From Solimonas variicoloris DSM 15731 (GTDB lineage Bacteria > Pseudomonadota > Gammaproteobacteria > Nevskiales > Nevskiaceae): DNA of 46,847 nt. The notes beneath the pieces were generated by a model. The model had not been told where the DNA came from. It saw only the letters and a list, made by a program, of their open reading frames with translations, and did not search any database. Shown here one piece after another: positions 345 through 36,056 of the stretch. The translations under genes and the position numbers were made by a program. Every line of letters starts with the position of its first letter. Positions within the stretch are counted from its first letter, which is position 1. Where the stretch lies: the NCBI RefSeq assembly GCF_000382285.1, contig NZ_KB907946.1, forward strand, positions 1-46,847, given 5' to 3'.

Positions 345-1289
345 TCACGGATCACGCCGGCGCCGCGCGCGCGGGTGGGCGTCGTCGTAGACCGTCGCCA
401 GATGTTTCCAGTCGAGATGGGTGTAGATCTGCGTCGTCGACAGATGCGCGTGCCCCAGCATCTCCTGCACGGCCCGCAAGTCGCCACTGTTTTCAAGCAT
501 GTGGGTCGCAAACGAATGCCGCAGGCGATGTGGATGCAGGTGCACACCCAGACCGTTGCGGCGCGCCCAGTCGCGCAAAGTTCGGGCAATCGCCGTACGC
601 GACAGGCGGCCACCGCGGGACGAGACGAACAGGGCCGGCTCGCCGACGCCGGCCAGACCCGCCCGGCAGGCCAGCCAGGCGTCGAGCGCAGCCCGCGCCT
701 TGCCGCCGAGCAGCACGATCCGCTGCTTGCTGCCCTTGCCGGTCACCGTCAGCTCCTGCTGGCGGGCGTCGAGCGCGCCGACATCGAGCCCATGCAGCTC
801 GGCCAGGCGCATGCCGGTCGAGTAGAACAGCTCGATCAGCGCGCGCGCGCGGACTGCGTCCTCGTCGCCCGCCGTGTCGCGATCGAGCGTGGCCGACAGG
901 GTTTCGGCGTCGATCACGGCCGGCAGCTTGCGTTGCAGCTTCGGCGCGCGCACCTGCGCGGCCGGATTCGCCGCCAGGCGCTGCTGGCGCACCAGGAAGC
1001 GGAACCAGCCACGCAGGCTGGACAGGTAGCGATGCAGGCTCGCCGGCTCGCGCCCGGCGCGGCGCTGCGCGCCGAGGAAATCGCGGACGCGATGCACGTC
1101 GATCTGCTCGAGCGCGGTGACGCGGGCCAGACCGCAGTAGTGGCCGAACCGGCGCAGATCGCGCTCGGCGGCCGCGACGGTATGCGGCGAGTAGCGCTTT
1201 TCGTCGCGCAGGTAGCCGAGGTAGTCGTCGACCAGCGGCGCGAAGAAGGCCGGCGCCTCGCTCTCCGCCGCCGGCGCCGCCGCCTTCAC
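345..1289 (-). CDS. xerC: Tyrosine recombinase XerC
   Basis: The 314-residue product is a site-specific tyrosine recombinase that, with XerD, resolves chromosome dimers at dif. The N-terminal SAM-like core-binding domain covers about residues 14-105 and the catalytic domain about 120-305. The full active-site set is visible: Arg161 (STGMRLAEL), Lys185 (TGKGSK), His254 and Arg257 (HPHRLRHSFATHML), His280 (LGHAHLST) and nucleophile Tyr289 (QIYTH). The GTG start at 1289 overlaps the stop of the upstream DUF484 gene as GTGA, which implies translational coupling. It also gives the normal family length of about 300 residues. A longer open frame extends to 1652, but that part is the shadow of the DUF484 gene. 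The order dapF-DUF484-xerC is the classical gammaproteobacterial arrangement and favours XerC over XerD. Confidence 0.95.
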   Translation of the reverse strand: MKAAAPAAESEAPAFFAPLVDDYLGYLRDEKRYSPHTVAAAERDLRRFGHYCGLARVTALEQIDVHRVRDFLGAQRRAGREPASLHRYLSSLRGWFRFLVRQQRLAANPAAQVRAPKLQRKLPAVIDAETLSATLDRDTAGDEDAVRARALIELFYSTGMRLAELHGLDVGALDARQQELTVTGKGSKQRIVLLGGKARAALDAWLACRAGLAGVGEPALFVSSRGGRLSRTAIARTLRDWARRNGLGVHLHPHRLRHSFATHMLENSGDLRAVQEMLGHAHLSTTQIYTHLDWKHLATVYDDAHPRARRRRDP

Positions 1290-1987
1290 GTCCGCGCGCG
1301 CACCGCGGCGGCCACCAGATCGGCGGTCAGCTCGAGGAACAGCTTGCCCTGACGCGGCGCGAAGCGTTCCGCCTCGCGCGAGCCGAGCGCGACGAAGCCG
1401 AGGCTCTTCTCCTTCTCCAGCGGCACGATCGCCGCCGAGCGGATCTCGGCCGCCTTCGGGAACAGCAGCTGCGCCCGCTCGGCGTCGATCGGCCCGCATT
1501 CGATCAGGCGGGTCCGGAAGAAGTCGTCGAGCGAGCGCGCCAGACGGCCGTCCGGCTCGATCGGCACGATGCCTTCGATGTCGTGGCGCTTGTAATGCGC
1601 CGCACCGATGCCGATCAGCGTGGCGTCGATATCGAAGTCCTCGCGCATGCACTTGGCGAGCCCGGCGGCGACGCCGGCCAGCGTCGGCGCCCGGATCAGC
1701 GTGCGCGCGAGGCGGTGCACATTGTCCTGGCGGCGCTCGTTGTCGCGGGCAGCTTCGAGCAGGCGTTCGAGGCGATCCTCGAGACGCTGATTCTTGGCGC
1801 GCAACAACTCGACCTGCTTTTCGATCAGCGACACCGCGGAACCGCTGCGATGCTTGAGCTCAATGCTTTCGAGCAGATCCGGATGACGGGCCAGGAAGTC
1901 AGGGTGCGCCTTCAGATACGCGACGATCTCGCGCTCGTTGAGCTTCGGCACCGCCGCTTCCTTGGCTTGCGTATTCAATTCGGCCAT
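1286..1987 (-). CDS. DUF484 family protein (GAF-like)
   Basis: This 233-residue protein sits between dapF and xerC, the conserved position of the DUF484 family in gammaproteobacteria. The N-terminal part carries the family signature of paired short helices ([20 protein letters not shown], residues about 22-41). A charged coiled-coil follows ([20 protein letters not shown], about 54-73), then a GAF-like globular domain to the end. The biochemical role is not established. A link to XerC or cell-wall precursor supply rests only on gene neighbourhood. The ATG at 1987 lies 13 bp inside the 3' end of dapF, and its stop overlaps the xerC start, so the three genes are very probably one transcript. 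Confidence 0.9.
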
Positions 1988-2814
1988 TCGATCTCCCCCT
2001 CGAAGACGGTTTCCGCCGGCCCCGTCATCAGCACCGGCTCGCCTTCGCCTCCCCACTCGATGCTCAGCTGGCCGCCGCGTACCTGCACGTCGACACAGGC
2101 ATCGAGCAGGCCCCACAGCCGTCCGACCGCCACCGCCGCGCAGGCGCCGCTGCCGCAAGCCAGCGTTTCGCCGGCGCCGCGCTCGTAGACGCGCAGGCGT
2201 ACGTAGCTGCGGTCGACGATCTGCAAAAAGCCGACGTTGACGCTCTGCGGGAACGCCGGATGCCGCTGCAGGCGCATGCCGAGCTCGGCGACCGGCGCAT
2301 GGTCGACGTCGGCGACCGTCAGCACCGCATGCGGATTGCCCATGCTCACCGCGCCGATCTCGACCGTCTCGCCCTTGTCGAGCGCCAGCGTGTAGCGCGC
2401 GGCGCGCGGCGCGGCCGCGAACGGAATGTCGCGCGGCTCGAAGCGCGGCACGCCCATGTCGACGCGGTACTGGTTGCCCTCGACGTGGCGCAGTTCGAGC
2501 ACACTGGTCTGCGTGCGCACGCGGATTGCATCCTTGTGCGACAGGCCGCGCTCGCGCACGAAGCGGGCCAGCGCCCGCGAGCCGTTGCCGCACTGGCCGA
2601 CCTCGCTGCCGTCGGCGTTGAAGATGCGATAGTTGAAATCGACGTCGGCGGTCGACGGCGGCTCGACGACCAGGACCTGATCGCAACCGACGCCGAAGCG
2701 GCGATCGGTGAGTCGCTGCAACAAGGCAGGTGTCGGCCGGAACGGCTCGCGGGTGGCATCGACGACGACGAAGTCGTTGCCGGCGCCTTCCATTTTGGTG
2801 AAGTGCAGCTTCAT
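1975..2814 (-). CDS. dapF: Diaminopimelate epimerase DapF
   Basis: The 279-residue enzyme interconverts LL- and meso-2,6-diaminopimelate, the step that supplies lysine and peptidoglycan precursors in the cytoplasm. It is PLP-independent and uses two cysteines as acid and base. Both are present in their conserved contexts: Cys75 in QCGNGSRA and Cys220 in ACGSGACAA. The N-terminus [16 protein letters not shown] matches the family signature and fixes the start at 2814, giving the usual length. No Shine-Dalgarno sequence precedes the ATG. Instead a TACAAT -10 box ends six bases upstream, so the mRNA may be leaderless. It is the first gene of the dapF-DUF484-xerC cluster and diverges from the VOC gene at 2938. 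Confidence 0.97.
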
Positions 2815-2820
2815 CCGTAT

Positions 2821-2826
2821 ATTGTA
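2821..2826 (-). promoter_or_regulatory. Candidate leaderless promoter -10 box for dapF
   Basis: Read on the minus strand, TACAAT is followed by six bases and then the dapF ATG. Transcription would then start at or next to the A of the start codon. No recognisable -35 hexamer lies 16-18 bases upstream (CGCCTC in that place), and there is no Shine-Dalgarno sequence. Confidence 0.4.
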
Positions 2827-2937
2827 TCGGCATCGGCCGCGCCGAGGCGGACCAGGGAGATCGATGGACCACACCGCACCGAACGGCCTGCCGCCGGGTC
2901 GCCGCCGCGCGCCGCGGCGCTGCGGGGAATCCGCGCC

Positions 2938-3330
2938 GTGAGGAACGTCTACGCGATCGTCACCACCCCCGAGATCCGCGCCTGCTGCGATTTCTACCGG
3001 CGCGCGCTCGACGCGCGCATCGTGTTCCGCGCCGACTGGTACGCACACATCAGCTTCCGCGGCTGGGAGCTGGGCTTTCTCAAGCCGCACCAGGACGCTC
3101 CGCTGCCGGTGTTCCAGCACACGACGACGACGCGCGGGCTGTGCATCGCGCTGGAGACCGAGAACGTGCAGGCCGACTACGAACAGCTGGTTTCGCGCGG
3201 TTTGGCGCCGCTCGGCCCGATGCGCGAGTTCGCCAATGGCGAGCGCTCGTTCGCCCTGATCGACCCGGCCGGCACCGTCCTCAACTTCGTCGAGCACCGC
3301 CCGCACGCCGCCGACGGCCCGAGCGCCTGA
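2938..3330 (+). CDS. VOC family (glyoxalase/bleomycin-resistance fold) protein
   Basis: This 130-residue protein has the vicinal-oxygen-chelate fold pattern: two beta-alpha-beta-beta-beta units, with [20 protein letters not shown] opening the first and [20 protein letters not shown] opening the second. The end [20 protein letters not shown] is the usual closing strand pair with a metal-ligand Glu. The substrate cannot be assigned. Members include lyases, dioxygenases and antibiotic-binding proteins. The GTG start at 2938 is chosen because GGGGA lies about 10 bases upstream and it begins exactly at the first beta strand. The same frame is open further upstream, but there it overlaps dapF antisense. 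The gene is monocistronic and divergent from dapF. Confidence 0.8.
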
Positions 3331-3351
3331 GCCGCGCGCCGCGGCGCTCCT

Positions 3352-3380
3352 TTGTCTTTTCAAAATGCGCGTGCTAGAAA
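3352..3380 (+). promoter_or_regulatory. Candidate sigma70 promoter for the actin-like gene
   Basis: TTGTCT (3352-3357), a 17-base spacer and TAGAAA (3375-3380) preceded by an extended -10 TGC. Transcription would start near 3387, leaving a leader of about 33 bases with TGGGGAG ahead of the GTG start at 3420. Confidence 0.4.
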
Positions 3381-3419
3381 CGCGCGGATCAGTTCGCCAC
3401 CGGGCATGGGGAGTCGTTC

Positions 3420-4433
3420 GTGAAGGTTCTCGGCGCAGACATCGGCTTCGGCTACACCAAGGCGACGGACGGCCGCCAGTTCCAGGTCTTCAAGTCGGTG
3501 GTCGGCGAAGCCGCCGAAGTGCAGTTCGGCGAAAGCCTGCTGCCGGGGGTGCCGCAGTATCCCCGCCACGTCATCATCGGCGGTCAAGGCTACTTCGTCG
3601 GCGAGCTCGCCGAGACCCAGTCACGCGGCCGCGGCTTCACACTCGACCAGAGCCAGTTCCTCGCCCAGTACGCCAAGATCCTGGCGCTGACGGCGCTCGC
3701 CCCGTTCGTCGACAGCGGCGATCCGGTGCGGCTCGTCACCGGCCTGCCGATCAGCTTCTTCCGCAAGCACCGCGACGCTCTGACGGCGCTGCTGCAGAGC
3801 CGCCACACGATCACCGTGGTCAAGCCGGGTGGCGCCGACCGCGAGGAGAAGATCGTCTACATCGAGCGCGTGCGCGTCGTGCCGCAGCCGTTCGGCTCGA
3901 TGTTCGACCTGATGCTCAACGACATCGGCAAGCCGGCCAGCCAGCGTTTCGTCTCCGAGAAGATCGGCATCATCGACATCGGCTTTCGCACCGCGGACTA
4001 CACGATCAGCGACAAGACGCGCTACTCGGAGCGCGGCTCGCAGAGCTCGGACGCCGGCATCTCCTCGGCCTACCAGGCGATCGCCAACGTGCTGCACGAG
4101 AAGAGCGGCGTCAGCGTCGAGCTGTACCGGCTCTACGACGGCGTCAGCAAGGGCACGATCAAGATCAAGGGCAAGAGCTACGATCTCACCGCGATCGTCA
4201 AGGCCGCATTCCAGCAGCTCGCGACGCGCATCGCCCAGGAAGTGAACCGCCTGTGGGCCGACGACTGGGACATCGACGCCATCGTCATCACCGGCGGCGG
4301 CGGCGCGACGCTGGCGCCGTACCTGCAGCCGCTGCTCGAAGGCGAGGTGCTGCCGATGTCGCCCGAGCAGGACGCGCGCCTCAACAACGTGCACGGCTAC
4401 TGGAAGTACGGCATGCACCTCTGGGGCGGCTGA
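3420..4433 (+). CDS. ParM/ALP-like actin-family ATPase
   Basis: The 337-residue product belongs to the prokaryotic actin-like proteins related to ParM/StbA and archaeal Ta0583. The nucleotide-binding motifs are visible: phosphate-1 loop [10 protein letters not shown] (residues about 5-14), phosphate-2 loop [15 protein letters not shown] in the middle, and adenosine motif [15 protein letters not shown] near the C-terminus. Such proteins polymerise with ATP. Plasmid versions push replicons apart together with a DNA-binding adaptor, ParR. No ParR-like gene or centromere-like repeat array follows here: the next gene is convergent with a 28-bp gap. The protein is therefore a chromosomal orphan of unknown cargo. 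The GTG start has a good ribosome-binding site. It could have a cytoskeletal or organelle-positioning role, but nothing in the sequence shows which. Confidence 0.85.
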
Positions 4434-26615: not shown

Positions 26616-29285
26616 TCAGCGGCGCCGACGGCGCCAGGCGCCGAGCAGCAGCGGCGCGAGCAGGCTCAGGCCGAGCGCACCGCCGCCGCCGTGCGCGGCG
26701 GGCGGCGGCTCCGCCTCGTTCGGGGTGCCGGCCAGTTCGAACGCCCAGATCGGCGCCATGCCGCCGTAGTTCGGATCGTAGCCACCGGCGATGTAACCCC
26801 GCGTCTGTCCGCGGCCGACCGCCGGCATCGTCAGGTGCCGCGCGTTATGCACGGCGACGCTCCAGGCGCTGCCGTCGAACAGCTCGCCGTCGTCCCAGCC
26901 GGCGGCGGCCGGATCGCCGACGCCGTGCAGCGCGTACAGGTGTCCGTCGTGGCGCAGCACGCCCATGCCGTGGCGCGCGCGCAGCATCGGCACGTCGTCG
27001 GCCGTCCATGCCGCGCCGGCCGGCGCGAGCCGCTGCACGAGCGCGGTCGGCGGGAAGCTGTCGTAGTCGTAGTTCATCAGGTAGCCACCGAGCAGACGCA
27101 CCGTGCCGCTGTCCGGATCGACATCGATGCCGGCGTTGGCGACCGCCTGGGCGAGCGGCGCGCCGGCGCTCCACGCGTCGGCGGCCGGATCGTAGACGTA
27201 GGTCTGCGCCGAAATGTCGTCCTGCAGCTCGGGCGGGAACAGGCGGCGGTTGCCGCCGGCGACGAGCAGCTTGCCGCCGACCGCCGCGACCGCCGGATAG
27301 ATCAGCCCCTCCGGCAGCGGCGCGCCTTCCGACCACTGGCCGGTCACCGTATCGAAGATCTGCAGCGCGTCGACCGCCTGATACTGCGCGTCCATGCCGC
27401 CGACCACATAGAGCTTCTCGCCGATCGCCGCGGCGCGCATCGCCGTCACCGCGCGCGGCATCGTCCAGGCGCTGTCGAACACCGAGGTCTGCGCGCGCGT
27501 ATCGAAGCGCTCGACGGCGCCGGTGCCGCCGTAGTACGTCGTGCCGCCGACGATCCACAGCTGCTCGCCGATCTGTGCGTAGGCGGCGTCGGAACGCGGC
27601 ACCGCCATCTCGCCGACGCGCACCGGCCGTTCGGCGATCGCGAAGCAGGCGGCGTTGGTCGACGCGCCGGCCGCGGTCTCCACCACCAGGCGACCGCTGC
27701 CGTAGGCGGCGCTCTCCGGCACGACGGCCGCGATGCGCCCGCCGCTCCAGCTCTGCACCGCCAGCGCCACGCGCGTGCCGTCGTCGCGTTCGAACGCGAC
27801 CGTGCCGCGCGCGTCGCCGAAGCGGTAACCGCGCAGCTGCACGGTCTGGCCGGGGCCGACCGCCAGCGGGCTCGCGCCCCACAGCGCGGCGCGCCCGGCG
27901 CCGGCCGCCAGCGCGGCGTCGAGACGCGCGATGCCCTCGGTGACCGCCTTGCCGCGCAGATCGGCGAGCGGCTTCGCACCGTTGAGCAGGGCGCTCTTGA
28001 TGTCGAGCATCGGCGCCTGCGGATACTGCGCCCAGACCAGCGCGGCGATGCCGCTGAGTTCGGCGGCGGCGACCGAAGTGCCGCCGAAGTAGCCGTAGCT
28101 GTTGCCCGGGAAGGTGGTCGTCGCGTCTTCGCTCGTCACGAACAGATCGACCGCGCCGCAGCCGTAGTTGCTGGTGTAGTCCGGCCCTTCCAGATCCGGC
28201 GCGGTGGCGCCGGCGGCGACGATGCCGTCGAGATCGTAGTTGGCCGGATACTGCGGCGCCTTGTCCGAATCCATGCTGTAGTTGCCGGCCGCGGCGACGA
28301 CGAGGATGCCGGCGTCGGTCGCCGCCTTGAACGCCTCGTGCAGCGCCGGACTGTTGGTCGGATCGCCCCACGACGCATTGATGATGACGCGCGACAGCTG
28401 CAGGCGCTGCTTGAGGTCGATGAGGTAGTCGATCGCCTCGACCGCGTCGGAATCGGCCGCCAGGAACAGCTGGTCGACGATGCGCAGCGGCAGCATCTGC
28501 ACGCGCCAGGCGACGCCGGCGCCGCCGAGCCCGTTGTTGCCGACCGCGCCGATCGCGCCGGCGACCGCGGTGCCGTGCACGCCGCCGTCGGCCGGATCGC
28601 TGTCGTCGTCGACGGTGTCGATGCCGTGCACGTCGTCGACGTAGCCGTTGCCGTCGTCGTCGACGCCGTTGCCGGCGATCTCGCCCGGATGCACCCAGAT
28701 GTTCTCGGCGAGATCCTCGTGGCCGTAGTCGATGCCGGAGTCGAGCACGGCGACCACCACGTCCGCGGCCAGGGTGCGCACGCTCCAGCCCTCGGGCGCG
28801 TTGAGGTCGCGATCGTCGAGACCGGACGCGTAGTTCACCACCTGGCCGATGTTGTGCAGCGTCCACTGCACGGCGAAGTACGGATCGTTCGGCAGCAGGC
28901 CCTGCGCGCGCCGCCGGAAATCGGGCGCGGCGAACTCGACCATGCCGCTGCGGTACAGCGCCTCGATCGTCTCGCCGACCGGCCGCCGCGTCTTCAGCGT
29001 CACCAGTCCGGTGCGCGCCGACGCTTTCAGCGGCGTCGCGCCGGCCTGCGCGAGCGCGGCGCGCAGCGCCGGCGGCAGACGCGTGCCGAGGCGCTGCGCC
29101 TGGGCCCGGGCACTGGCGGCGGACGCCTGCCGGGCGAGCGGCACGTCCTTGAAGCGGACGATGACGCGATCGAGCGCGAGATCGTTGCGCAGCGGCACGC
29201 GAAACTCGTCGGCCGCCGCGGCCTGTGCGGCGAACGGCAGCAGGCCGAGCGCGGCGAGCGCCAGCGCGACGCCGCGGGCGCCGTG
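26616..29285 (-). other. Polyprotein module 3: S8 subtilase with IPT/TIG and kelch repeats
   Basis: Residues 2258-3146. It opens with GARGVALALAALGLLPFAAQ then AAAADE, a signal-peptide-like hydrophobic segment with a likely AQA cleavage site, but no ATG, GTG or TTG precedes it in frame near the junction. Prodomain, S8 domain (Asp2439 in VLDSGIDYGHEDL, His2494 in GGVHGTAVAG, Ser2661 in GGTSVAAAEL), TIG-like domain (PGQTVQLRGYRFG) and kelch repeats (LWIVGGTTYYGG, LYVVGGMDAQ, LLVAGGNRR, VRLLGGYLMN) repeat the order of module 2. The DDDGNGYVDD loop is also kept. The two modules therefore arose by duplication and have diverged. The gene ends in HGGGGALGLSLLAPLLLGAW plus Arg5. Confidence 0.83.
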
Positions 29286-32200
29286 CCGGCGCAGGCCGGC
29301 CAGCAGCAGCGGCAGCAGACCCAGCAGGGTCAGCGCGCCGCCGCCCGAACGCGCCGGCGGCGCATCGACCGCCGCACGCGCGGCGAGCGCGAAGCGATAC
29401 ACCTGGGGCGAGGCGTCGTAGTAATAGATGCCGCCGATCACGACCAGCGTCTGGCCGCCGAACACGTAGGCACGGTCGCCGACCACGGCCGCCGCCGGCG
29501 CGATCAGGTCGATGCTGCCGCTCATCGCCTCGCGCCACTGCCCGTCGGCGTACAGCGCGCCGTTGCGATAGCCCATCGGCACGCCGAAGGGGCTCGGCGC
29601 GCCGTCGCCGTGCAGCAGATAGACCGCGTCGCGATAGACCAGCGGCGCAGCGCGTGCGCGCGGCGCGGCCAGCGCCGGGCCCGCCGTCCAGCGGTCGTTC
29701 CTGAAGTCGTAGCGGTCGACACGCGTGCCGGGCTGCGCGCCTTCGCCGTAGCCGCCGAGCACGACGATCGCGTCGCCCGCCGGCGCCAGCACCGCGGCGC
29801 GGCCGTAGGCCGCGACCGGCATCGCCGCGCCCTGCGTCCAGCGCCGTGCGGCGGGATCGTAGACATAGGTCGTGGCGACGATCTCGGCGCCGGTCGGCTG
29901 CTGCTGCCACTGCGGCGTGCCGCCGAAGACGTAGAGCCGGCCGCCGCCGGCGGCGACCGCCACCTCGCCGAGCGCGGCCGGCAGATCCGGACCGGTGCTC
30001 CAGCTGCCGCTGGCGGGATCGAAGATCTGCAAGTGCGCGGTGGCGATGCCGTCGGCGTCGAAGCCGCCGACCACGTAGATCCTGCCGTCGATCTGCGCGC
30101 TGCCGGCGTCGTGCACGGCGTGCGGCATCAGCCAGCGGGTGTCGACGTACGGCGTTTCGCTGACCGCGTCGAAGCGCTCGGTCAGCGCCGTCGTGCCGTA
30201 CGGCGTGAGGCCGCCGAACACCCAGACCTGCTCGCCACTCGCCTGCACGGTCGCGCCGGTGCGCGGCACCGCGGCACTGGCGACCGGGGTCGCCCGATCG
30301 GACACCGTGAAACAGGTCTGCGCCGAATCGACGCCGGCCGCGGTGGCGAGGATCAGGTCGCCGGCGCCGTAGTCGAGCGTCGCCGGCAGCATCGCGGTGA
30401 CCGCATCGTCGCTCCAGGCCTGCACGGTCAGCGCCGTATCGCCGCCGTCGCGGCGCAGACGCACGCTGCCCGGCATCGCCCCGAAGTGCCGCCCGTGCAG
30501 CGTCACCGTGGCGCCGGGCCGGGCCGCGGTCGACGACAGCTTCCACACCGCCGGCGTCGCCGTCGTGTAGGCGAGCGCGGCGTCAGCGCGCACCAGGCCC
30601 TGCGCGATCGATGCGCCCTTGAGATCGGGCAGCGGCTTGCTGCTCGACAGGATGGCGCTCTTGATGTCCTGCCACGGCGCGTCCGGGTTCTGCGACCAGA
30701 CCAGCGCGGCGATGCCGGAAACGATCGCCGCCGCCTGCGAAGTGCCGCTGCTGATGGCGAGCCCGCCGGGATATGGCCCGAGGATCCATTCGCCGGGCGC
30801 GAGCACGTCGACCGTGCCGCAGCCGAAGTTGCTGAAGCCGGCGACGCCGGTATAGCTGGTCGCCGCGGCGCCGACCGCGAGCACCGCATCGGACGGATCG
30901 GCGGCCGGATAGGACGGCCGGTAGTCGATGTCGCGGCTGTCGTTGCCGGCGGCGGCGACGACAAGGATTCCGGCCGCCTCGGCGGCGGCGATCGCATCGT
31001 GCAGCGCCGGGCTGTCGGCGTCGCCGCCGAAGCTGAGGTTCAGCACCACGCGCGGCAGGCCGAGCGCCTGCTTGGTGCGCACGACGTAGTCGATCGCCTC
31101 GATCACGGAAGAATCGTTGATGAAGCCGCGCGCGTTGAGCACCTTCAGCGCCATCAGCTGCGCCTGCCAGGCGACGCCGGCCGAGTCGAGGCCGTTGTTG
31201 CCGACCGCGCCGACGATGCCGCTCACCAGGCTGCCGTGCGAGTTGTCGTCGTACGGATCGCCGCTGCCGTAGACCGGCGCGATACCGTAGACGTCGTCGA
31301 CGTAGCCGTTGCCGTCGTCGTCGACGCCGTTGTCGGCCATCTCGCCCGGGTTGCGCCAGAGGTTCGGCATGAAGTCCGGGTTGTAGTAGTCGATGCCGCT
31401 GTCGACGACGGCCACCACCACTGCGCTGCCGTCGGTGCGCACGCTCCACGCTTCCGGGGCGTTGATGTCGCGGTCGCCGAGGCCCCAGAGGCTGACCAGC
31501 GGCTGATACTGGGCGACGTCGTCGAGGCCCCATTGCCACGAGAAAAAGGTGTCATCCGGATAGCGCGCCGCCTGCGGGCGGCGTGCGTAATCGGGCACCG
31601 CATACTCGACCGCGCCGCTGCGATAGAGCGCGTCGATGGTCTTGGCGAGCGCCGCCTGGCCGCCGGCCGGGAGCCCGTCGAGCAGCAGCAGGCCGAGGCC
31701 GGGATAGGCGGCGCGCGGCCGCAGACCGGTCTGCGCGAGGCGCTCGCGCGTCGCCGCCGGCAGCGCGGCGAACGTCGCCGCGGCGCGCGCCGGACCCGCC
31801 AGCCGCGCCAGCTTGGCCGCGCCGGACGGCGCCTGCCGGAGCTTGACGAGCACGCCGGCCGGCGCCTCGTCGGCGCGCGCCTGCGCCGGATCGGCGCGCA
31901 GATACGGCGGCGGCAGCTCGATCCTGCTGACGGTGGTGGCCTGCGCGGCGGGCGCGACGAGCAGGCCCAGCACGACGACGAGCAGCGCGGGCACGCGCGC
32001 GGTCCTGAGTTTCATCGAACGATTCCGGAGACGATGGATGTGGACGGCCGGACGGCCGCGCCAGCGACGTGCCGCGCCGAGCAGCAGCAGCGTCAGCAGC
32101 CACAGCGGCTGCAGGGCGCCGCCGCCGCCCTTGCCGCCGCTGGCCGCGGCCGGGCGCACGGTGACGGCGACGCTGTCCTCGGCAACGCGCGTGCCGTCGC

Positions 32201-35200
32201 TGACCGTGATGCGGAAGCGCAGCACGGTCGGCGCATCGACGTCCGGCGCCTGGAAGCGCGGCGCCGTCGTGTCGGCAGCGCTCAGCGCGACCTGCGGCCC
32301 GTCGGTCTGCACCCAGCCGACCGTCAGCGTGTCGACGCCGTCCTGATCGCGCGCCGCGCCGGCGAGCTGCACCACGGTCGGCGCGCCGCCGCTGCGCGCG
32401 TCGACGCTCTGGTCGGGACCGGCGTCGGCGTGCGGCGGGCGCGCGTCGCAGGCCGTGGCGTTGGCGACGATGCGGCTGAACGGCAGGTTGCGGATACCGG
32501 CGAACGCAACGTTGTCGATCATCCAGCCGGTATCGCCGATCACGCCGTCGCTGGCGAGGCGGAAACGCAGCTTCACGCGCCGGCCGCCGAACGAATAGCC
32601 GAGACTCAGCACGCTGTGCGCGAGCTGCTGCTGCGGGTTCAGCTCGCCGATGAAGGCCGGCACGCCGAAGTTGGGCTCGAACACCAGCGCCAGACCGTTG
32701 TAGCCGCCTTCGACGAAATGGCTGTCGAGGTTGGCGACGTTGTAGAAGTCGGTGCCGTTGGTGCTGAGCTCGATGACGGCGCCGTCGTAGCCGTACTGCT
32801 GGCCGTCCTGCTCGCCGGCATATTCGAGGCGGAACCAGTGATCGAAACTCATCGTGAACTCGGCGCCGTCCTCGACCTCCAGCCACGGCGAGGTCAGCGT
32901 CAGATCCGAGCCGCTCGCATGGTCCGGCGCCATCCACAGGTGATTGCCGTCGCCGGCCTCGCGCACCGCCCAGCCGGGCATGCCGAGCGGCAGCGCCGCG
33001 ACCTGCCAGTCGACCTGCGTCGCCGCGCCGGTCTCGACATCGTCGGCGCGCGCGTGCGGCTGCGCGTCGAAATTGACGAAGCTGGCCTGCGTCAGCGGCT
33101 GCGGCTCCAGCACCGCGCCGGCGTCCTCGCCGACCGGCGCGAAGGCGATCGTCAGCCGCATCGGCTGGCCGACGCCGGCGCGCTCGAGCCTGAAGGTCGT
33201 GGTCGCGCTCATCTCGTCGCCGCTGGCCAGCGGCGGATTGAAGACGATGCGGCCGCCGTTGGCGAAACTCAGGTCGGCGTCGCTGCTGAGCTGGGCGACG
33301 ACCGGCTCGTTGATCGTGCGCGTGCCATAGCCGCGGATGCGCAGCGTCAGCGCCGCGGTCTCGCCGGCGTCGAGCACGCCGTCGGCGGTGCAGTAGCCGG
33401 CGACGCCGTCGTCGTAGGCGTAGTCGACGCTCGCCGCGCTGATCTCGAAGCTGCCGGCGTCGGCGATGTTGCTCTCGTGCACGCCGGTCAGGTCGTCGCT
33501 CCAGCGGTCCGGGGCGATCGCGCCGACGCCCATGCCGCGCTTGGCGAAGGCCGCGGCGGCGAGCCGGAAGTCGGCCTCGTCGGTCGCCGCGACCGCGGCG
33601 AGCAGCGCGTCGCGCGCCTCGAGATAGGTCGGCGCGACCGGCGTCATCTTCAGGCCGGCGATCACGTAGTCCTGCATGCGCGCGCGCGCCTGCTCGAAGC
33701 TGTAGCGCGGATCGTTGAGCAACGCCGCGTAGAACTCCCACAGCGTGTTGGCCCAGATCTCACCGGCCGCATGCACTTCGTTGTTGTCGGCGCCGTCGGT
33801 GGCGCCGGCGATCGGCGCCGTGTCCGGCAGCGGCTCGCCCTTGGCGATGTGCCGGAACGTCATCGGATAGACCGTCAGGTCGGTCGAATACGGCGCGCGG
33901 CGCAGACCGAAGTAGGTGCTGGCGCTGACGTAGAGCGCGGCGCCGTACGGTCCCTGATAGTGGTCGTTGCCGGCGACGAGGCGGTCCTCGGCGCGCACCG
34001 ACAGCAGCAGCGTCGAGAAGTCGCTCCAGCCCTCGCCCATCGCCACGCCCTGGCGGTTGATCAGGCCGTTGCCGTCACCGACCAGGCGGTTGCTGACGTA
34101 GTGGAAGAATTCGTGGGCGATGATGCCGGTGTCGAGCGTGCCGTCGTAGTCGGTGGACGCGTCGCGCTGCACGTGCAGCGTCACCGCGCCCTGCGCCAGC
34201 GCCTCGCGCAGGCGCGCGCCGTCGCGCTTGAGGATCGCCAGCGTGCCGATCGTGACGCTGGCGTCCTGCCCGGCGAGGCCGAGCGGAGCGGTCGCGTCCT
34301 GGTTGTCGGCGATCAGCACCGCGGTCGCGCCGGCGGCCTGGGCGTTGGCGGTCTTGACGACGAAATCGCAGCCGCCACGGTCGATCAGCGCGATGCGGCC
34401 GGCGACCTCGGCGGCGTTGGCGAACGGCGCTTCGCAGCCGTCGCCGGCGTTGCCGCTGCCGTCGTCGACCGGCGCGAGTTCGCCGTCGACGGCGAACTGC
34501 TTCGGACCGAACTCGGCGACGCCGAACGCGAAGCTGCCGAGTCCTTCCGGGACGAGGACCGTCAGCGCGCCGCTGACCGGGCCGTCCCAGAGATACATCT
34601 GCATGCGCGGCGGATAGCCATCCGGCGGCGTCGACATGTTGGCGTTGTTGCGGCCGCCGAAATCCTGGCCCTGCGCGAACATCGCATCGTCCTCGAGGCC
34701 GCCGCGCCCGTAGTTGCGGCGCTGCGCGTTGCCGGCCGCCTCGCCGAAGCCGTGGTCGTACCAGAAGTCGTGCAGCCAGTTGGTGACATAGAAGAGATTG
34801 AGCACGGCGCCGTTGCGCGCGACGCTGCTGCGCGGATCGCCGTCTGCGACGAGCGGATAGTCGAACACGCCGGGCGCGGTCATCGTCGCGCGCAGATCGC
34901 CGAGCAGCGGGTCGTAGCCGTCGATGCCGGCGATATCCAGATAGGCGTCGACGTTGTTGCCGACGGTCTGCGTGGCGCCGTCGTCGAGCCACGGGTCCTG
35001 GGTGCTGATCGGCCCGTGCGCGAGCGTGACGAGCTGCGTCGCCGCCGGCGCGCGCGGCGGCGCCTGCGCCGGATCGCGCACCGTCGCCGGAACGAAACCG
35101 TTGCCGAGCGGACCGTCGTATGGCTGGCGGATGCCCTCGGCGTCGGCCCAGACGCGATAGCTCGCGGCGAGGTCGGCGGTCTGGTCCTTGCGCTGCAGCA

Positions 35201-36056
35201 CGCGGCCGTCGCGGGCCGAGATCACGTAGCCGTAGGCGCGGCGCTCGCCGCCGTCGGCGCTCGCCGCGCGCAGGTCGACGTAGTGCGCGGGCTCCAGCCG
35301 CTCGCGGCCGGCGGCGTCGCGGCCGGCGTAATAGACGGGCTTGCTGCGCGGCGTCTCGACCAGATGCCAGGCGCCGGCGGCGCGGCCGGCGGGCGCGAAG
35401 AGACGGTAGCCGCCGCGCTCGGCGCCGGCCTGCAGCGACTGCGTCAGGGGCTCGCCGGTGAGGTCGGCGTACGCGGCGGCGATCGCCTGCGGAGCGTCGA
35501 GCGCGAACGCGGCGCGCGCAGCGCCGTCGGCGGCGGGCGTCACGGCGAAGTAGCCGGACACCGCCAGCGGCCGCAGTTCGCGATCGAGCAGGACGTTGAA
35601 GCTGCGCGCGAACACCTCGATGCCGTCGTGCATCTGCCGGAAGCGCGCCACCAGCGGGCCGCGGCCGGTATCGTGCAGCTCGGCGAGCCGCGCCGCGTCG
35701 ACGCTCGCCCGGCTCACGCCGAGCAGCGTGCGCTGTGTCTGCAGCACGCGCCGCGCCGCGGCCTCGGCCTGCAGCGCCGGCCTGAGCGGCGCGAGGCGCT
35801 CGGACACCGCGCCCCGCTCGACCCACAGGAAAGTCGAGCCGCCGAGCGCGGCATCGTAGTGCGACGGGAAGCCGTGGCGGCCGGGCAGCGCCTGCGGCGC
35901 GATCGTCGCGACGCTGCGCCGCGCCACCGCCTGCGCAGCACGCCGGGCGTCGATCGCCGTCGCAGCGGCATCGAAATTGGCGGGCGCAGCGCCCAGATCA
36001 CGCGCGGCCAGCGCCAGCAGCAGCGCGCCGATGAAGGCGGGCACGGAAGTACGCAT
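26616..36056 (-). CDS. Tandem secreted protease polyprotein: M36 - S8/kelch - S8/kelch
   Basis: A single frame without stops codes 3146 residues. It contains, in order, a Sec signal peptide (1-24), an M36 fungalysin-like metalloprotease, a GlyGly-CTERM-like tail (1307-1335), a second signal-like segment (about 1348-1373), an S8 protease with TIG and kelch regions, a second GlyGly tail (2238-2257), a third signal-like segment (2261-2279), a second S8 protease with TIG and kelch regions, and a final GlyGly tail (3122-3146, ending in five Arg). All three active sites are intact. Known GlyGly-CTERM proteins carry one such tail at the C-terminus and are cut by a rhombosortase; three in one chain is unusual. 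ATG at 36056 with AGGGG upstream is the start; earlier in-frame codons to 36206 lack a signal peptide. A missed frameshift or lost stop could split it, so genuine fusion needs sequence confirmation. The three modules are described separately. Confidence 0.85.
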   Translation of the reverse strand: MRTSVPAFIGALLLALAARDLGAAPANFDAAATAIDARRAAQAVARRSVATIAPQALPGRHGFPSHYDAALGGSTFLWVERGAVSERLAPLRPALQAEAAARRVLQTQRTLLGVSRASVDAARLAELHDTGRGPLVARFRQMHDGIEVFARSFNVLLDRELRPLAVSGYFAVTPAADGAARAAFALDAPQAIAAAYADLTGEPLTQSLQAGAERGGYRLFAPAGRAAGAWHLVETPRSKPVYYAGRDAAGRERLEPAHYVDLRAASADGGERRAYGYVISARDGRVLQRKDQTADLAASYRVWADAEGIRQPYDGPLGNGFVPATVRDPAQAPPRAPAATQLVTLAHGPISTQDPWLDDGATQTVGNNVDAYLDIAGIDGYDPLLGDLRATMTAPGVFDYPLVADGDPRSSVARNGAVLNLFYVTNWLHDFWYDHGFGEAAGNAQRRNYGRGGLEDDAMFAQGQDFGGRNNANMSTPPDGYPPRMQMYLWDGPVSGALTVLVPEGLGSFAFGVAEFGPKQFAVDGELAPVDDGSGNAGDGCEAPFANAAEVAGRIALIDRGGCDFVVKTANAQAAGATAVLIADNQDATAPLGLAGQDASVTIGTLAILKRDGARLREALAQGAVTLHVQRDASTDYDGTLDTGIIAHEFFHYVSNRLVGDGNGLINRQGVAMGEGWSDFSTLLLSVRAEDRLVAGNDHYQGPYGAALYVSASTYFGLRRAPYSTDLTVYPMTFRHIAKGEPLPDTAPIAGATDGADNNEVHAAGEIWANTLWEFYAALLNDPRYSFEQARARMQDYVIAGLKMTPVAPTYLEARDALLAAVAATDEADFRLAAAAFAKRGMGVGAIAPDRWSDDLTGVHESNIADAGSFEISAASVDYAYDDGVAGYCTADGVLDAGETAALTLRIRGYGTRTINEPVVAQLSSDADLSFANGGRIVFNPPLASGDEMSATTTFRLERAGVGQPMRLTIAFAPVGEDAGAVLEPQPLTQASFVNFDAQPHARADDVETGAATQVDWQVAALPLGMPGWAVREAGDGNHLWMAPDHASGSDLTLTSPWLEVEDGAEFTMSFDHWFRLEYAGEQDGQQYGYDGAVIELSTNGTDFYNVANLDSHFVEGGYNGLALVFEPNFGVPAFIGELNPQQQLAHSVLSLGYSFGGRRVKLRFRLASDGVIGDTGWMIDNVAFAGIRNLPFSRIVANATACDARPPHADAGPDQSVDARSGGAPTVVQLAGAARDQDGVDTLTVGWVQTDGPQVALSAADTTAPRFQAPDVDAPTVLRFRITVSDGTRVAEDSVAVTVRPAAASGGKGGGGALQPLWLLTLLLLGAARRWRGRPAVHIHRLRNRSMKLRTARVPALLVVVLGLLVAPAAQATTVSRIELPPPYLRADPAQARADEAPAGVLVKLRQAPSGAAKLARLAGPARAAATFAALPAATRERLAQTGLRPRAAYPGLGLLLLDGLPAGGQAALAKTIDALYRSGAVEYAVPDYARRPQAARYPDDTFFSWQWGLDDVAQYQPLVSLWGLGDRDINAPEAWSVRTDGSAVVVAVVDSGIDYYNPDFMPNLWRNPGEMADNGVDDDGNGYVDDVYGIAPVYGSGDPYDDNSHGSLVSGIVGAVGNNGLDSAGVAWQAQLMALKVLNARGFINDSSVIEAIDYVVRTKQALGLPRVVLNLSFGGDADSPALHDAIAAAEAAGILVVAAAGNDSRDIDYRPSYPAADPSDAVLAVGAAATSYTGVAGFSNFGCGTVDVLAPGEWILGPYPGGLAISSGTSQAAAIVSGIAALVWSQNPDAPWQDIKSAILSSSKPLPDLKGASIAQGLVRADAALAYTTATPAVWKLSSTAARPGATVTLHGRHFGAMPGSVRLRRDGGDTALTVQAWSDDAVTAMLPATLDYGAGDLILATAAGVDSAQTCFTVSDRATPVASAAVPRTGATVQASGEQVWVFGGLTPYGTTALTERFDAVSETPYVDTRWLMPHAVHDAGSAQIDGRIYVVGGFDADGIATAHLQIFDPASGSWSTGPDLPAALGEVAVAAGGGRLYVFGGTPQWQQQPTGAEIVATTYVYDPAARRWTQGAAMPVAAYGRAAVLAPAGDAIVVLGGYGEGAQPGTRVDRYDFRNDRWTAGPALAAPRARAAPLVYRDAVYLLHGDGAPSPFGVPMGYRNGALYADGQWREAMSGSIDLIAPAAAVVGDRAYVFGGQTLVVIGGIYYYDASPQVYRFALAARAAVDAPPARSGGGALTLLGLLPLLLAGLRRHGARGVALALAALGLLPFAAQAAAADEFRVPLRNDLALDRVIVRFKDVPLARQASAASARAQAQRLGTRLPPALRAALAQAGATPLKASARTGLVTLKTRRPVGETIEALYRSGMVEFAAPDFRRRAQGLLPNDPYFAVQWTLHNIGQVVNYASGLDDRDLNAPEGWSVRTLAADVVVAVLDSGIDYGHEDLAENIWVHPGEIAGNGVDDDGNGYVDDVHGIDTVDDDSDPADGGVHGTAVAGAIGAVGNNGLGGAGVAWRVQMLPLRIVDQLFLAADSDAVEAIDYLIDLKQRLQLSRVIINASWGDPTNSPALHEAFKAATDAGILVVAAAGNYSMDSDKAPQYPANYDLDGIVAAGATAPDLEGPDYTSNYGCGAVDLFVTSEDATTTFPGNSYGYFGGTSVAAAELSGIAALVWAQYPQAPMLDIKSALLNGAKPLADLRGKAVTEGIARLDAALAAGAGRAALWGASPLAVGPGQTVQLRGYRFGDARGTVAFERDDGTRVALAVQSWSGGRIAAVVPESAAYGSGRLVVETAAGASTNAACFAIAERPVRVGEMAVPRSDAAYAQIGEQLWIVGGTTYYGGTGAVERFDTRAQTSVFDSAWTMPRAVTAMRAAAIGEKLYVVGGMDAQYQAVDALQIFDTVTGQWSEGAPLPEGLIYPAVAAVGGKLLVAGGNRRLFPPELQDDISAQTYVYDPAADAWSAGAPLAQAVANAGIDVDPDSGTVRLLGGYLMNYDYDSFPPTALVQRLAPAGAAWTADDVPMLRARHGMGVLRHDGHLYALHGVGDPAAAGWDDGELFDGSAWSVAVHNARHLTMPAVGRGQTRGYIAGGYDPNYGGMAPIWAFELAGTPNEAEPPPAAHGGGGALGLSLLAPLLLGAWRRRRR
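29286..32015 (-). other. Polyprotein module 2: S8 subtilase with IPT/TIG and kelch repeats
   Basis: Residues 1348-2257. It begins MKLRTARVPALLVVVLGLLV, ending APAAQA, a complete signal peptide with its own ATG at 32015 and a weak GGAA upstream. Independent initiation is therefore possible besides read-through. An inhibitor-like prodomain (GVLVKLRQAP to AVEYAVPDYA) precedes the S8 domain with Asp1552 (VVDSGIDY), His1607 (NSHGSLVSG) and Ser1773 (SGTSQAAA). A calcium-type loop DDDGNGYVDD is inserted after the Asp. An IPT/TIG-like domain (PGATVTLHGRHFG) and kelch-type repeats (VWVFGGLTPYGT, IYVVGGFDADG, LYVFGGTPQ, IVVLGGYGEG) follow. The tail is SGGGALTLLGLLPLLLAGLRR. Confidence 0.83.
32016..36056 (-). 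other. Polyprotein module 1: M36 fungalysin-like metalloprotease with PA and PKD-like domains
   Basis: Residues 1-1347. After the signal peptide, an FTP-type propeptide (about 75-180, with RFRQMHDGIEVFARSFNVLL) precedes the catalytic domain. Its zinc site is HEFFH (648-652), with the third ligand Glu675 in GEGWSDF. A protease-associated domain is inserted before the zinc motif (about 520-630, RIALIDRGGCDFVVKTANAQ). After the peptidase come an Ig-like strand-rich part, a jelly-roll-like segment (DHWFRLEYAGEQDGQQYGYD) and a PKD/REJ-like domain (ADAGPDQSVDARSGGAPTVV). The tail at 1307-1335 is Gly-rich, then WLLTLLLLGAARRWRGR. Expected role: secreted, broad-specificity endopeptidase activated by propeptide removal. 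Confidence 0.85.

What the first reader, a model, noticed from the sequence alone, without database searches (positions are those of the whole stretch)
26616..36056. Three secreted proteases in one 3146-codon frame, each with its own GlyGly-CTERM-like tail
The frame holds M36, S8 and S8 proteases with intact catalytic residues. Three Gly-rich/TM/Arg tails occur at 1307-1335, 2238-2257 and 3122-3146. Two hydrophobic signal-like segments follow the first two tails directly. Each tail span would go out-to-in and each signal-like span in-to-out, with Arg-rich loops (RRWRGR..., RRHGARG) inside, so the topology agrees with the positive-inside rule. A rhombosortase cut at each Gly-Gly and a signal-peptidase cut at each AQA would release three separate proteins. 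GlyGly-CTERM is known as a terminal sorting signal; internal tandem use would be a new polyprotein strategy.
Basis: partly seen in the sequence, partly recalled or inferred. Interest (0 to 1): 0.92.

Follow-up and report, generated by a model that had tools for sequence, protein, structure and literature searches.

The report
Bacterial polyproteins cut at sorting tails
One very long bacterial gene encodes three exported proteases joined end to end by short membrane hairpins that look built to be cut apart, and the same kind of hairpin recurs in related bacteria, often joining a surface protein to an outer-membrane barrel.

Summary
On the minus strand, 36056..26616 is one stop-free 3146-codon frame encoding M36, S8-kelch and S8-kelch proteases. 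All three Gly-rich tails pass the GlyGly-CTERM cut-off. Two are internal, each followed by an Arg-rich loop and a second signal peptide. Junction 2 has no start codon; junction 1 keeps an ATG and is weaker. An artefact is unlikely: the genome has two further such frames, and I read 37 junctions in 36 frames from 27 genomes. One frame type is conserved in three species of the genus, another in two. Most other frames join an exported protein to an OmpA-type barrel. All 13 junction genomes in a 369-genome class sample encode rhombosortase, against 126 of 369 overall. Best reading: rhombosortase cuts the tail and signal peptidase the second signal, so one chain yields two or three exported proteins. 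Cleavage is untested. The idea has one published cousin, an internal MYXO-CTERM protein (MXAN_5598). Searches (listings, plus passages of five papers) showed no report for GlyGly-CTERM.

The parts
26616..36056 (-). Whole 3146-codon frame: M36 + S8-kelch + S8-kelch precursor
   Evidence: Stop-free translation, ATG to TGA
35985..36056 (-). N-terminal signal peptide (MRTSVPAFIGALLLALAARDLGAA), end set by eye
   Evidence: Sequence; hydropathy peak
32127..35984 (-). M36 unit with PA and PKD-like domains; HEXXH at 34101-34115
   Evidence: Pfam; NCBIfam M36 models match nearly full length but under cut-off; alignment to 4k90
32058..32126 (-). Internal GlyGly-CTERM tail 1
   Evidence: TIGR03501 15.8 bits, cut-off 15.5
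32016..32057 (-). Junction 1 Arg-rich spacer, GC3 0.64 against 0.93 for the frame; looks like a former leader
31938..32015 (-). Second signal peptide, begins with its own ATG, ends APAAQA
29346..31937 (-). S8-1 protease with kelch propeller
   Evidence: Pfam S8 and kelch; deseasin MCP-01 match 9.8e-67
29220..29345 (-). Junction 2 hairpin: GlyGly-CTERM tail 2, RRHGAR loop, third signal peptide ending AAQA; no ATG/GTG/TTG
   Evidence: TIGR03501 18.6 bits; codons
26688..29219 (-). S8-2 protease with kelch propeller, 45% identical to S8-1
26619..26687 (-). Terminal GlyGly-CTERM tail 3
   Evidence: TIGR03501 15.7 bits; stop follows one residue after the match

Best explanation
The frame is a precursor for three exported proteases. 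Its first signal peptide starts Sec export of the M36 unit. Each internal GlyGly-CTERM tail then stops transfer with the Gly-rich side outside and the Arg loop inside, and the hydrophobic segment after the loop restarts transfer as a second signal peptide. Signal peptidase I cuts after A-x-A, freeing the N-terminus of the next unit. Rhombosortase cuts at the Gly-rich motif, freeing the C-terminus of the previous unit for lipid-type attachment and type II secretion, as for ordinary GlyGly-CTERM proteins. The left-over hairpin is degraded. The same cassette joins other pairs, above all an exported surface-type protein and an OmpA-type barrel. Making the units in one chain fixes their ratio, timing and place of export. 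Shown: the frame, tails, loops, signal-like segments, recurrence, conservation of sister fusions, and the presence of a rhombosortase gene. Inferred: both cuts, the topology, and the reason for coupling.
For: Three tails over the curated cut-off. Rhombosortase over cut-off in the own genome carrying GMSGVIHGL, cf. the SGMLHGL active-site peptide quoted from PMC3237569, next to T2SS pseudopilin genes. Survey not selected for hairpins: of 58 TIGR03501 hits at E 0.5 or better in 11 genomes of the genus, 50 are terminal, 1 is a false hit and 7 are internal; all 7 are followed by a second signal. Two more such frames in the same genome. The Calx-beta/OmpA frame is 94% and 71% identical in two other species with the fusion kept; the double-subtilase frame is kept in one. 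dN/dS across the C17 hairpin is 0.23 against 0.21 in both units. 37 junctions: 169 basic to 1 acidic loop residue; 20 of 37 lack ATG/GTG/TTG between the two cores. All 12 class-sample junction genomes other than our own have rhombosortase against 125 of 368, P 1.6e-6 uncorrected for kinship. OMP-type Pfam hits in the second unit in 23 of 27 scanned frames of that type; a barrel tied to an inner-membrane hairpin would hardly reach the outer membrane uncut (inference).
Against: No cleavage data. Haft and Varghese (PMC3237569, passages) suggest that the extreme C-terminal position may help rhombosortase choose its substrates, which internal tails would contradict. Junction 1 has its own ATG and a low-GC3 spacer, and the shifted frame ends in ATGA there, so it may be two overlapping genes or a recent fusion. 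The window's own three-protease frame has no orthologue in the genomes searched. The dN/dS of the C6 loop-plus-signal part, G000 against G007, is 1.99 on only 6 changes. Rhombosortase co-occurrence is not specific to junctions: of the other 28 class genomes with a model match, 23 also have one and 5 do not, so the tail itself explains much of it. Models A3 and A4 were built from hairpins, so loop charge and tail motif are partly selected for, and neither nor 54 listed junction 1. A-x-A sites were picked by eye; no signal-peptide predictor or structure model was available.
Confidence: 0.72

Rival explanations
1. Partial processing: signal peptidase cuts the second signal, but rhombosortase does not accept internal tails, so the upstream protein stays in the inner membrane by tail plus hairpin or is cut by GlpG.
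For: PMC3237569 (passages) suggests that the extreme C-terminal position helps specificity. GlpG processes VesB when rhombosortase is absent (PMC13393428, passages).
Against: Internal tails keep a full GlyGly-CTERM signature over cut-off, and junction genomes have rhombosortase. The GlyGly-CTERM works as a portable motif at the C-terminus of other proteins (PMC13393428, abstract and passages).
Confidence: 0.15
2. Uncut multidomain protein: the hairpins stay as permanent membrane anchors holding several periplasmic proteases together.
For: One open frame; the Arg loops fit a stable helical hairpin.
Against: Second units include OmpA-type barrels and two with lipobox-like sites, which would need a freed N-terminus. 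Small-x-Ala sites end most second segments (picked by eye).
Confidence: 0.06
3. Junction 1 is two separately translated genes whose apparent fusion is an error or a recent loss of a stop; only junction 2 is a true internal junction here.
For: Own ATG at 32013-32015; spacer GC3 0.64; shifted frame ends in ATGA at that ATG; M. xanthus traA and traB overlap by four bases (PMC3325183, passages).
Against: The frame is open as sequenced; other internal junctions also carry in-frame ATGs (G008_C14, G426_C1a).
Confidence: 0.25
4. The whole finding is a sequencing or assembly artefact.
For: Draft assembly of 48 contigs; the window is one contig.
Against: The same design was read in 27 genomes, with orthologous fusions in separate genomes.
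Confidence: 0.02

Closest known systems
GlyGly-CTERM / rhombosortase proteins (VesB type; PMC3237569, PMC6219818: passages; PMC13393428: abstract and passages)
   Same: Same tripartite tail, passing the same model and cut-off; same protease family in the genome; T2SS pseudopilin genes beside the rhombosortase gene
   Different: Tail is internal and followed by a second signal peptide and another protein; in the passages read it is described at the C-terminus
MXAN_5598 of Myxococcus xanthus, internal MYXO-CTERM (PMC11980579, Discussion part 1 and passages)
   Same: Adhesin region, internal sorting tail, then an outer-membrane barrel with OmpA domain; authors propose that the N-terminal part is processed
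   Different: Different tail and protease (myxosortase); described there as atypical and such ORFs as rare; the text read names no second signal peptide and no chained proteases
TraA/TraB of M. xanthus (PMC3325183, passages)
   Same: Sorting-tail surface protein paired with an OmpA-domain protein
   Different: Two genes overlapping by four bases, not one frame
Bradyrhizobium FbcH cytochrome b/c1 precursor, and viral envelope polyproteins cut by signal peptidase (recalled; the listings of two searches held no FbcH paper)
   Same: Internal signal peptide cut inside a longer chain
   Different: No sorting tail; different protein classes

Membership tests
GlyGly-CTERM tail | Gly-rich motif, TM segment, basic cluster; score over TIGR03501 cut-off 15.5 | tested here: met
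   15.8, 18.6 and 15.7 bits
GlyGly-CTERM tail | Located at the protein C-terminus | tested here: not met
   Met only by tail 3; tails 1 and 2 have 1815 and 889 residues after the match. Internal tails are GlyGly-CTERM-like sites in a new position
GlyGly-CTERM tail | Rhombosortase encoded in the genome | tested here: met
   141.1 bits, cut-off 84
GlyGly-CTERM tail | Cleavage by rhombosortase | not testable with these tools
   Needs proteomics or reconstitution
rhom_dep_M36 (NF038111) | Score over cut-off 1700 | tested here: not met
   1096.3 bits over nearly the full model; the myxosortase-dependent M36 model NF038112 scores higher, 1218.8, but is also under its cut-off of 1500
M36 fungalysin | Pfam match and HEXXH/Glu | tested here: met
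S8 subtilase (two units) | Pfam match and Asp/His/Ser triad | tested here: met
Sec signal peptide, SPase I type (internal) | Basic n-region, hydrophobic core, small-x-Ala end | tested here: inconclusive
   Features present on inspection, sites chosen by eye; no signal-peptide predictor was available
Polyprotein | Precursor cut into separate functional proteins | not testable with these tools
   Inferred only

The most novel reading that the evidence does not exclude
A widespread bacterial 'cut-apart' cassette: internal GlyGly-CTERM tail, Arg loop and second signal peptide let one gene make several exported proteins with different fates (surface-anchored, outer-membrane barrel, lipoprotein, protease) in fixed ratio. 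In its main form it couples a surface adhesin-like protein to an OmpA-type partner, a one-chain analogue of TraA/TraB.
Probability: 0.55. Interest if true: 0.87.

Novelty: new variant of a known kind. Interest (0 to 1): 0.78.

Why it matters
If the cuts occur, bacteria make envelope proteins as polyproteins more often than thought, and a sorting tail named for its C-terminal position also works inside a chain. That bears directly on how rhombosortase recognises its substrates. It also predicts partners: a surface protein and the OmpA barrel made with it in one chain should act together. And it affects annotation, since some long proteins that look like single 'OmpA family' or 'Calx-beta' proteins may be two proteins.

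Tried and rejected
Plus-strand reading of the coordinates: set aside because the minus strand carries the domains. Orthologues of the window frame: none found in relatives, class sample, genus or GTDB contigs (4 distant loci); that last scan may leave out near records. Rows dropped on reading: G008:C20 (not a Gly tail), G335:C7 (terminal), L203/G446:C82 (terminal), L201/G428:C179 (stand-alone barrel), G000:C5 (looks like a transporter end). From I fetched 16 + 18 regions, chosen as long matches, mostly without stops. Tail-only rows were not read, nor were several rows reaching partly into the second signal (for instance G014:C3; G119:C124 and G183:C1), so counts are lower bounds. In one search at most 17 candidates per genome were scored, and even our own junction 2 was not listed there. 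The codon test on C6 was weak: few changes, loop dN/dS above 1 in one pair. Literature: the listings of searches show no report of internal GlyGly-CTERM; of those papers I saw text of five only (PMC3237569, PMC6219818, PMC13393428, PMC11980579, PMC3325183). Haft 2024 (PMC10810001) is not held and could contain prior art.

Full report
What is there. Pfam finds an M36 fungalysin with PA and PKD-like domains, then two S8-kelch units. Catalytic motifs are intact by alignment to solved relatives and between the two S8 units, which are 45% identical. That points to tandem duplication of a complete unit: export signal, protease, kelch propeller, tail. All three tails pass the curated GlyGly-CTERM cut-off of 15.5 bits, at 15.8, 18.6 and 15.7.

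The two internal junctions differ. Junction 2 (29220-29345) runs GGGALTLLGLLPLLLAGL-RRHGAR-GVALALAALGLLPFAAQA and has no ATG, GTG or TTG, so as sequenced S8-2 can hardly be made except as part of the chain. Junction 1 has an ATG directly before its signal peptide, a 14-codon spacer with GC3 0.64 against 0.93 for the frame, and a shifted frame that ends in ATGA at that ATG. It may be a younger fusion, or S8-1 may also start on its own.

It is not a single oddity. In the same genome, a 2447-residue frame on contig C17 holds two subtilase units joined by the same kind of hairpin, and an 800-residue frame on C6 holds a Calx-beta protein, an internal tail, a signal peptide and an OmpA-type barrel. 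The C17 tail scores 12.1 bits, under the cut-off. In the genus, 58 TIGR03501 hits at E 0.5 or better in 11 genomes were all read: 50 are within 28 residues of a stop, 1 is a false hit (a signal peptide), and 7 are internal. All 7 are followed by a second signal. They lie in 5 of the 11 genomes (G000, G003, G006, G007, G008). The second unit is a trypsin-like protease in G008 and a CehA/McbA-type metallohydrolase behind a lipobox-like site in G006.

Other fusions are conserved. The C6 frame is 94% identical in G007 and 71% in G003, both with the junction open. A 44% relative in another genus (G433) spans the junction without a stop. The C17 frame is kept in G007. Across the C17 hairpin dN/dS is 0.23, against 0.21 in both units. 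For C6 the hairpin gives 0.52 (G007) and 0.73 (G003), and the loop-plus-signal part alone gives 1.99 in one pair on 6 changes. So C17 is good evidence of translation through the junction, and C6 is weaker on this test alone. The window's own frame has no orthologue to test.

How wide it is. A model of 7 hairpins was searched in the 58 family genomes that the tool returned, and one of 17 hairpins in a 369-genome class sample. From I fetched 16 regions and 18; 14 and 17 proved to be junctions. With those from the genus this gives 37 junctions in 36 frames from 27 genomes: 15 of the 58 family genomes and 12 further genomes of the class sample. Of the 34 fetched regions 3 were dropped: one stand-alone barrel and two terminal tails. 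Tail-only rows and several partial rows were not read, and at most 17 candidates per genome were scored, so these are lower bounds. Loops hold 169 Lys/Arg and 1 Asp/Glu. Ala stands at the chosen -1 site in 34 of 37; two have lipobox-like sites and one has Ser. Sites were picked by eye and the models favour Arg loops, so these are consistency checks, not independent tests. 20 of 37 junctions have no start codon between the two hydrophobic cores.

Second units. Of 27 frames thought to carry a barrel and scanned, 23 have an OMP-type Pfam hit (OmpA_membrane, OMP_b-brl or OmpA) after the hairpin at E 0.01 or better: 9 of 12 in the family and 14 of 15 in the class sample. In two of the 23 (G437, G427) the only such hit is under Pfam's own cut-off. 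No hit: G426_C1b, G439, G445 and G063; the first three align with the C6 barrel. The two C6 orthologues in the genus were not scanned. The E. coli OmpA model NF008071 aligns from profile positions 2-8 in three frames, so it includes the internal signal region.

The enzyme. Rhombosortase is over cut-off in the own genome and in 56 of 58 family genomes, where it cannot discriminate. In the class sample it is over cut-off in 126 of 369, and in all 13 genomes with read junctions. Without our own genome that is 12 of 12 against 125 of 368, hypergeometric P 1.6e-6. The 12 fall in 8 families, so they are not independent. The other 28 genomes with a match are a partial control: 23 have rhombosortase and 5 do not, so much of the association belongs to the tail rather than to the junction. 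The own rhombosortase has WRLLTGS and GMSGVIHGL motifs, matching the WRxxS/T and SGMLHGL elements quoted in PMC3237569. T2SS genes gspG and gspJ over cut-off, and a gspH-like gene just under it, lie beside it.

Mechanism. Each tail should halt export with its Gly side out and Arg side in; the next hydrophobic stretch should restart it. Signal peptidase I (or II at the two lipobox-like sites) would free the next N-terminus, and rhombosortase the previous C-terminus. VesB work reports rhombosortase cleavage at the tail and surface display by type II secretion (PMC6219818, passages), and that the tail is portable (PMC13393428, abstract and passages). Whether rhombosortase accepts a tail with more chain behind it has not been shown in what I read.

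What is known. PMC3237569 (passages) treats the tail as C-terminal and has no occurrence of 'internal', 'polyprotein', 'tandem' or 'fusion'. [quoted passage not shown] So the concept has one published cousin. What appears new is the GlyGly-CTERM form, the second signal peptide as a defined partner, chains of proteases including a triple, and recurrence with conserved fusions. This rests on the listings of searches; Haft 2024 was not held.

Verdict.

Noticed in passing
L073:357-7697 (G000:C17): Second polyprotein-like frame in the same genome, 2447 aa, two subtilase units joined by a tail/signal hairpin; conserved in G007:C7.
   Followed up: yes
L078:2180-4579 (G000:C6): Third such frame, 800 aa, Calx-beta protein plus OmpA-type barrel; kept in two other species of the genus.
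   Followed up: yes
L074:3282-3947 with 646-3451: Rhombosortase gene sits divergently beside gspG/gspH/gspJ-like type II secretion genes.
   Followed up: partly
L199 (G006:C13) and L242 (G331:C100): Internal tails followed by lipobox-like signals, so the second product would be a lipoprotein.
   Followed up: partly
L128:3639-6614 (G008:C14): Tandem duplicate of a whole trypsin-like unit (signal, protease, tail) fused in one 988-aa frame; parallels the S8 pair in the window.
   Followed up: partly
window:25593-36152 (+): A 3519-codon open frame on the opposite strand, presumably a GC-rich shadow; no domain search was made on it.
   Followed up: no
window:25488-26543 (-): TrmB-type winged-helix regulator just downstream of the protease frame.
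   Followed up: no
L003 (G000:C1:8787-12815): M36 paralogue in the same genome whose match region includes one TGA; not examined further.
   Followed up: no
L201 (G428:C179): Stand-alone relative of the C6 barrel with its own start and signal peptide, showing the barrel also exists unfused.
   Followed up: partly
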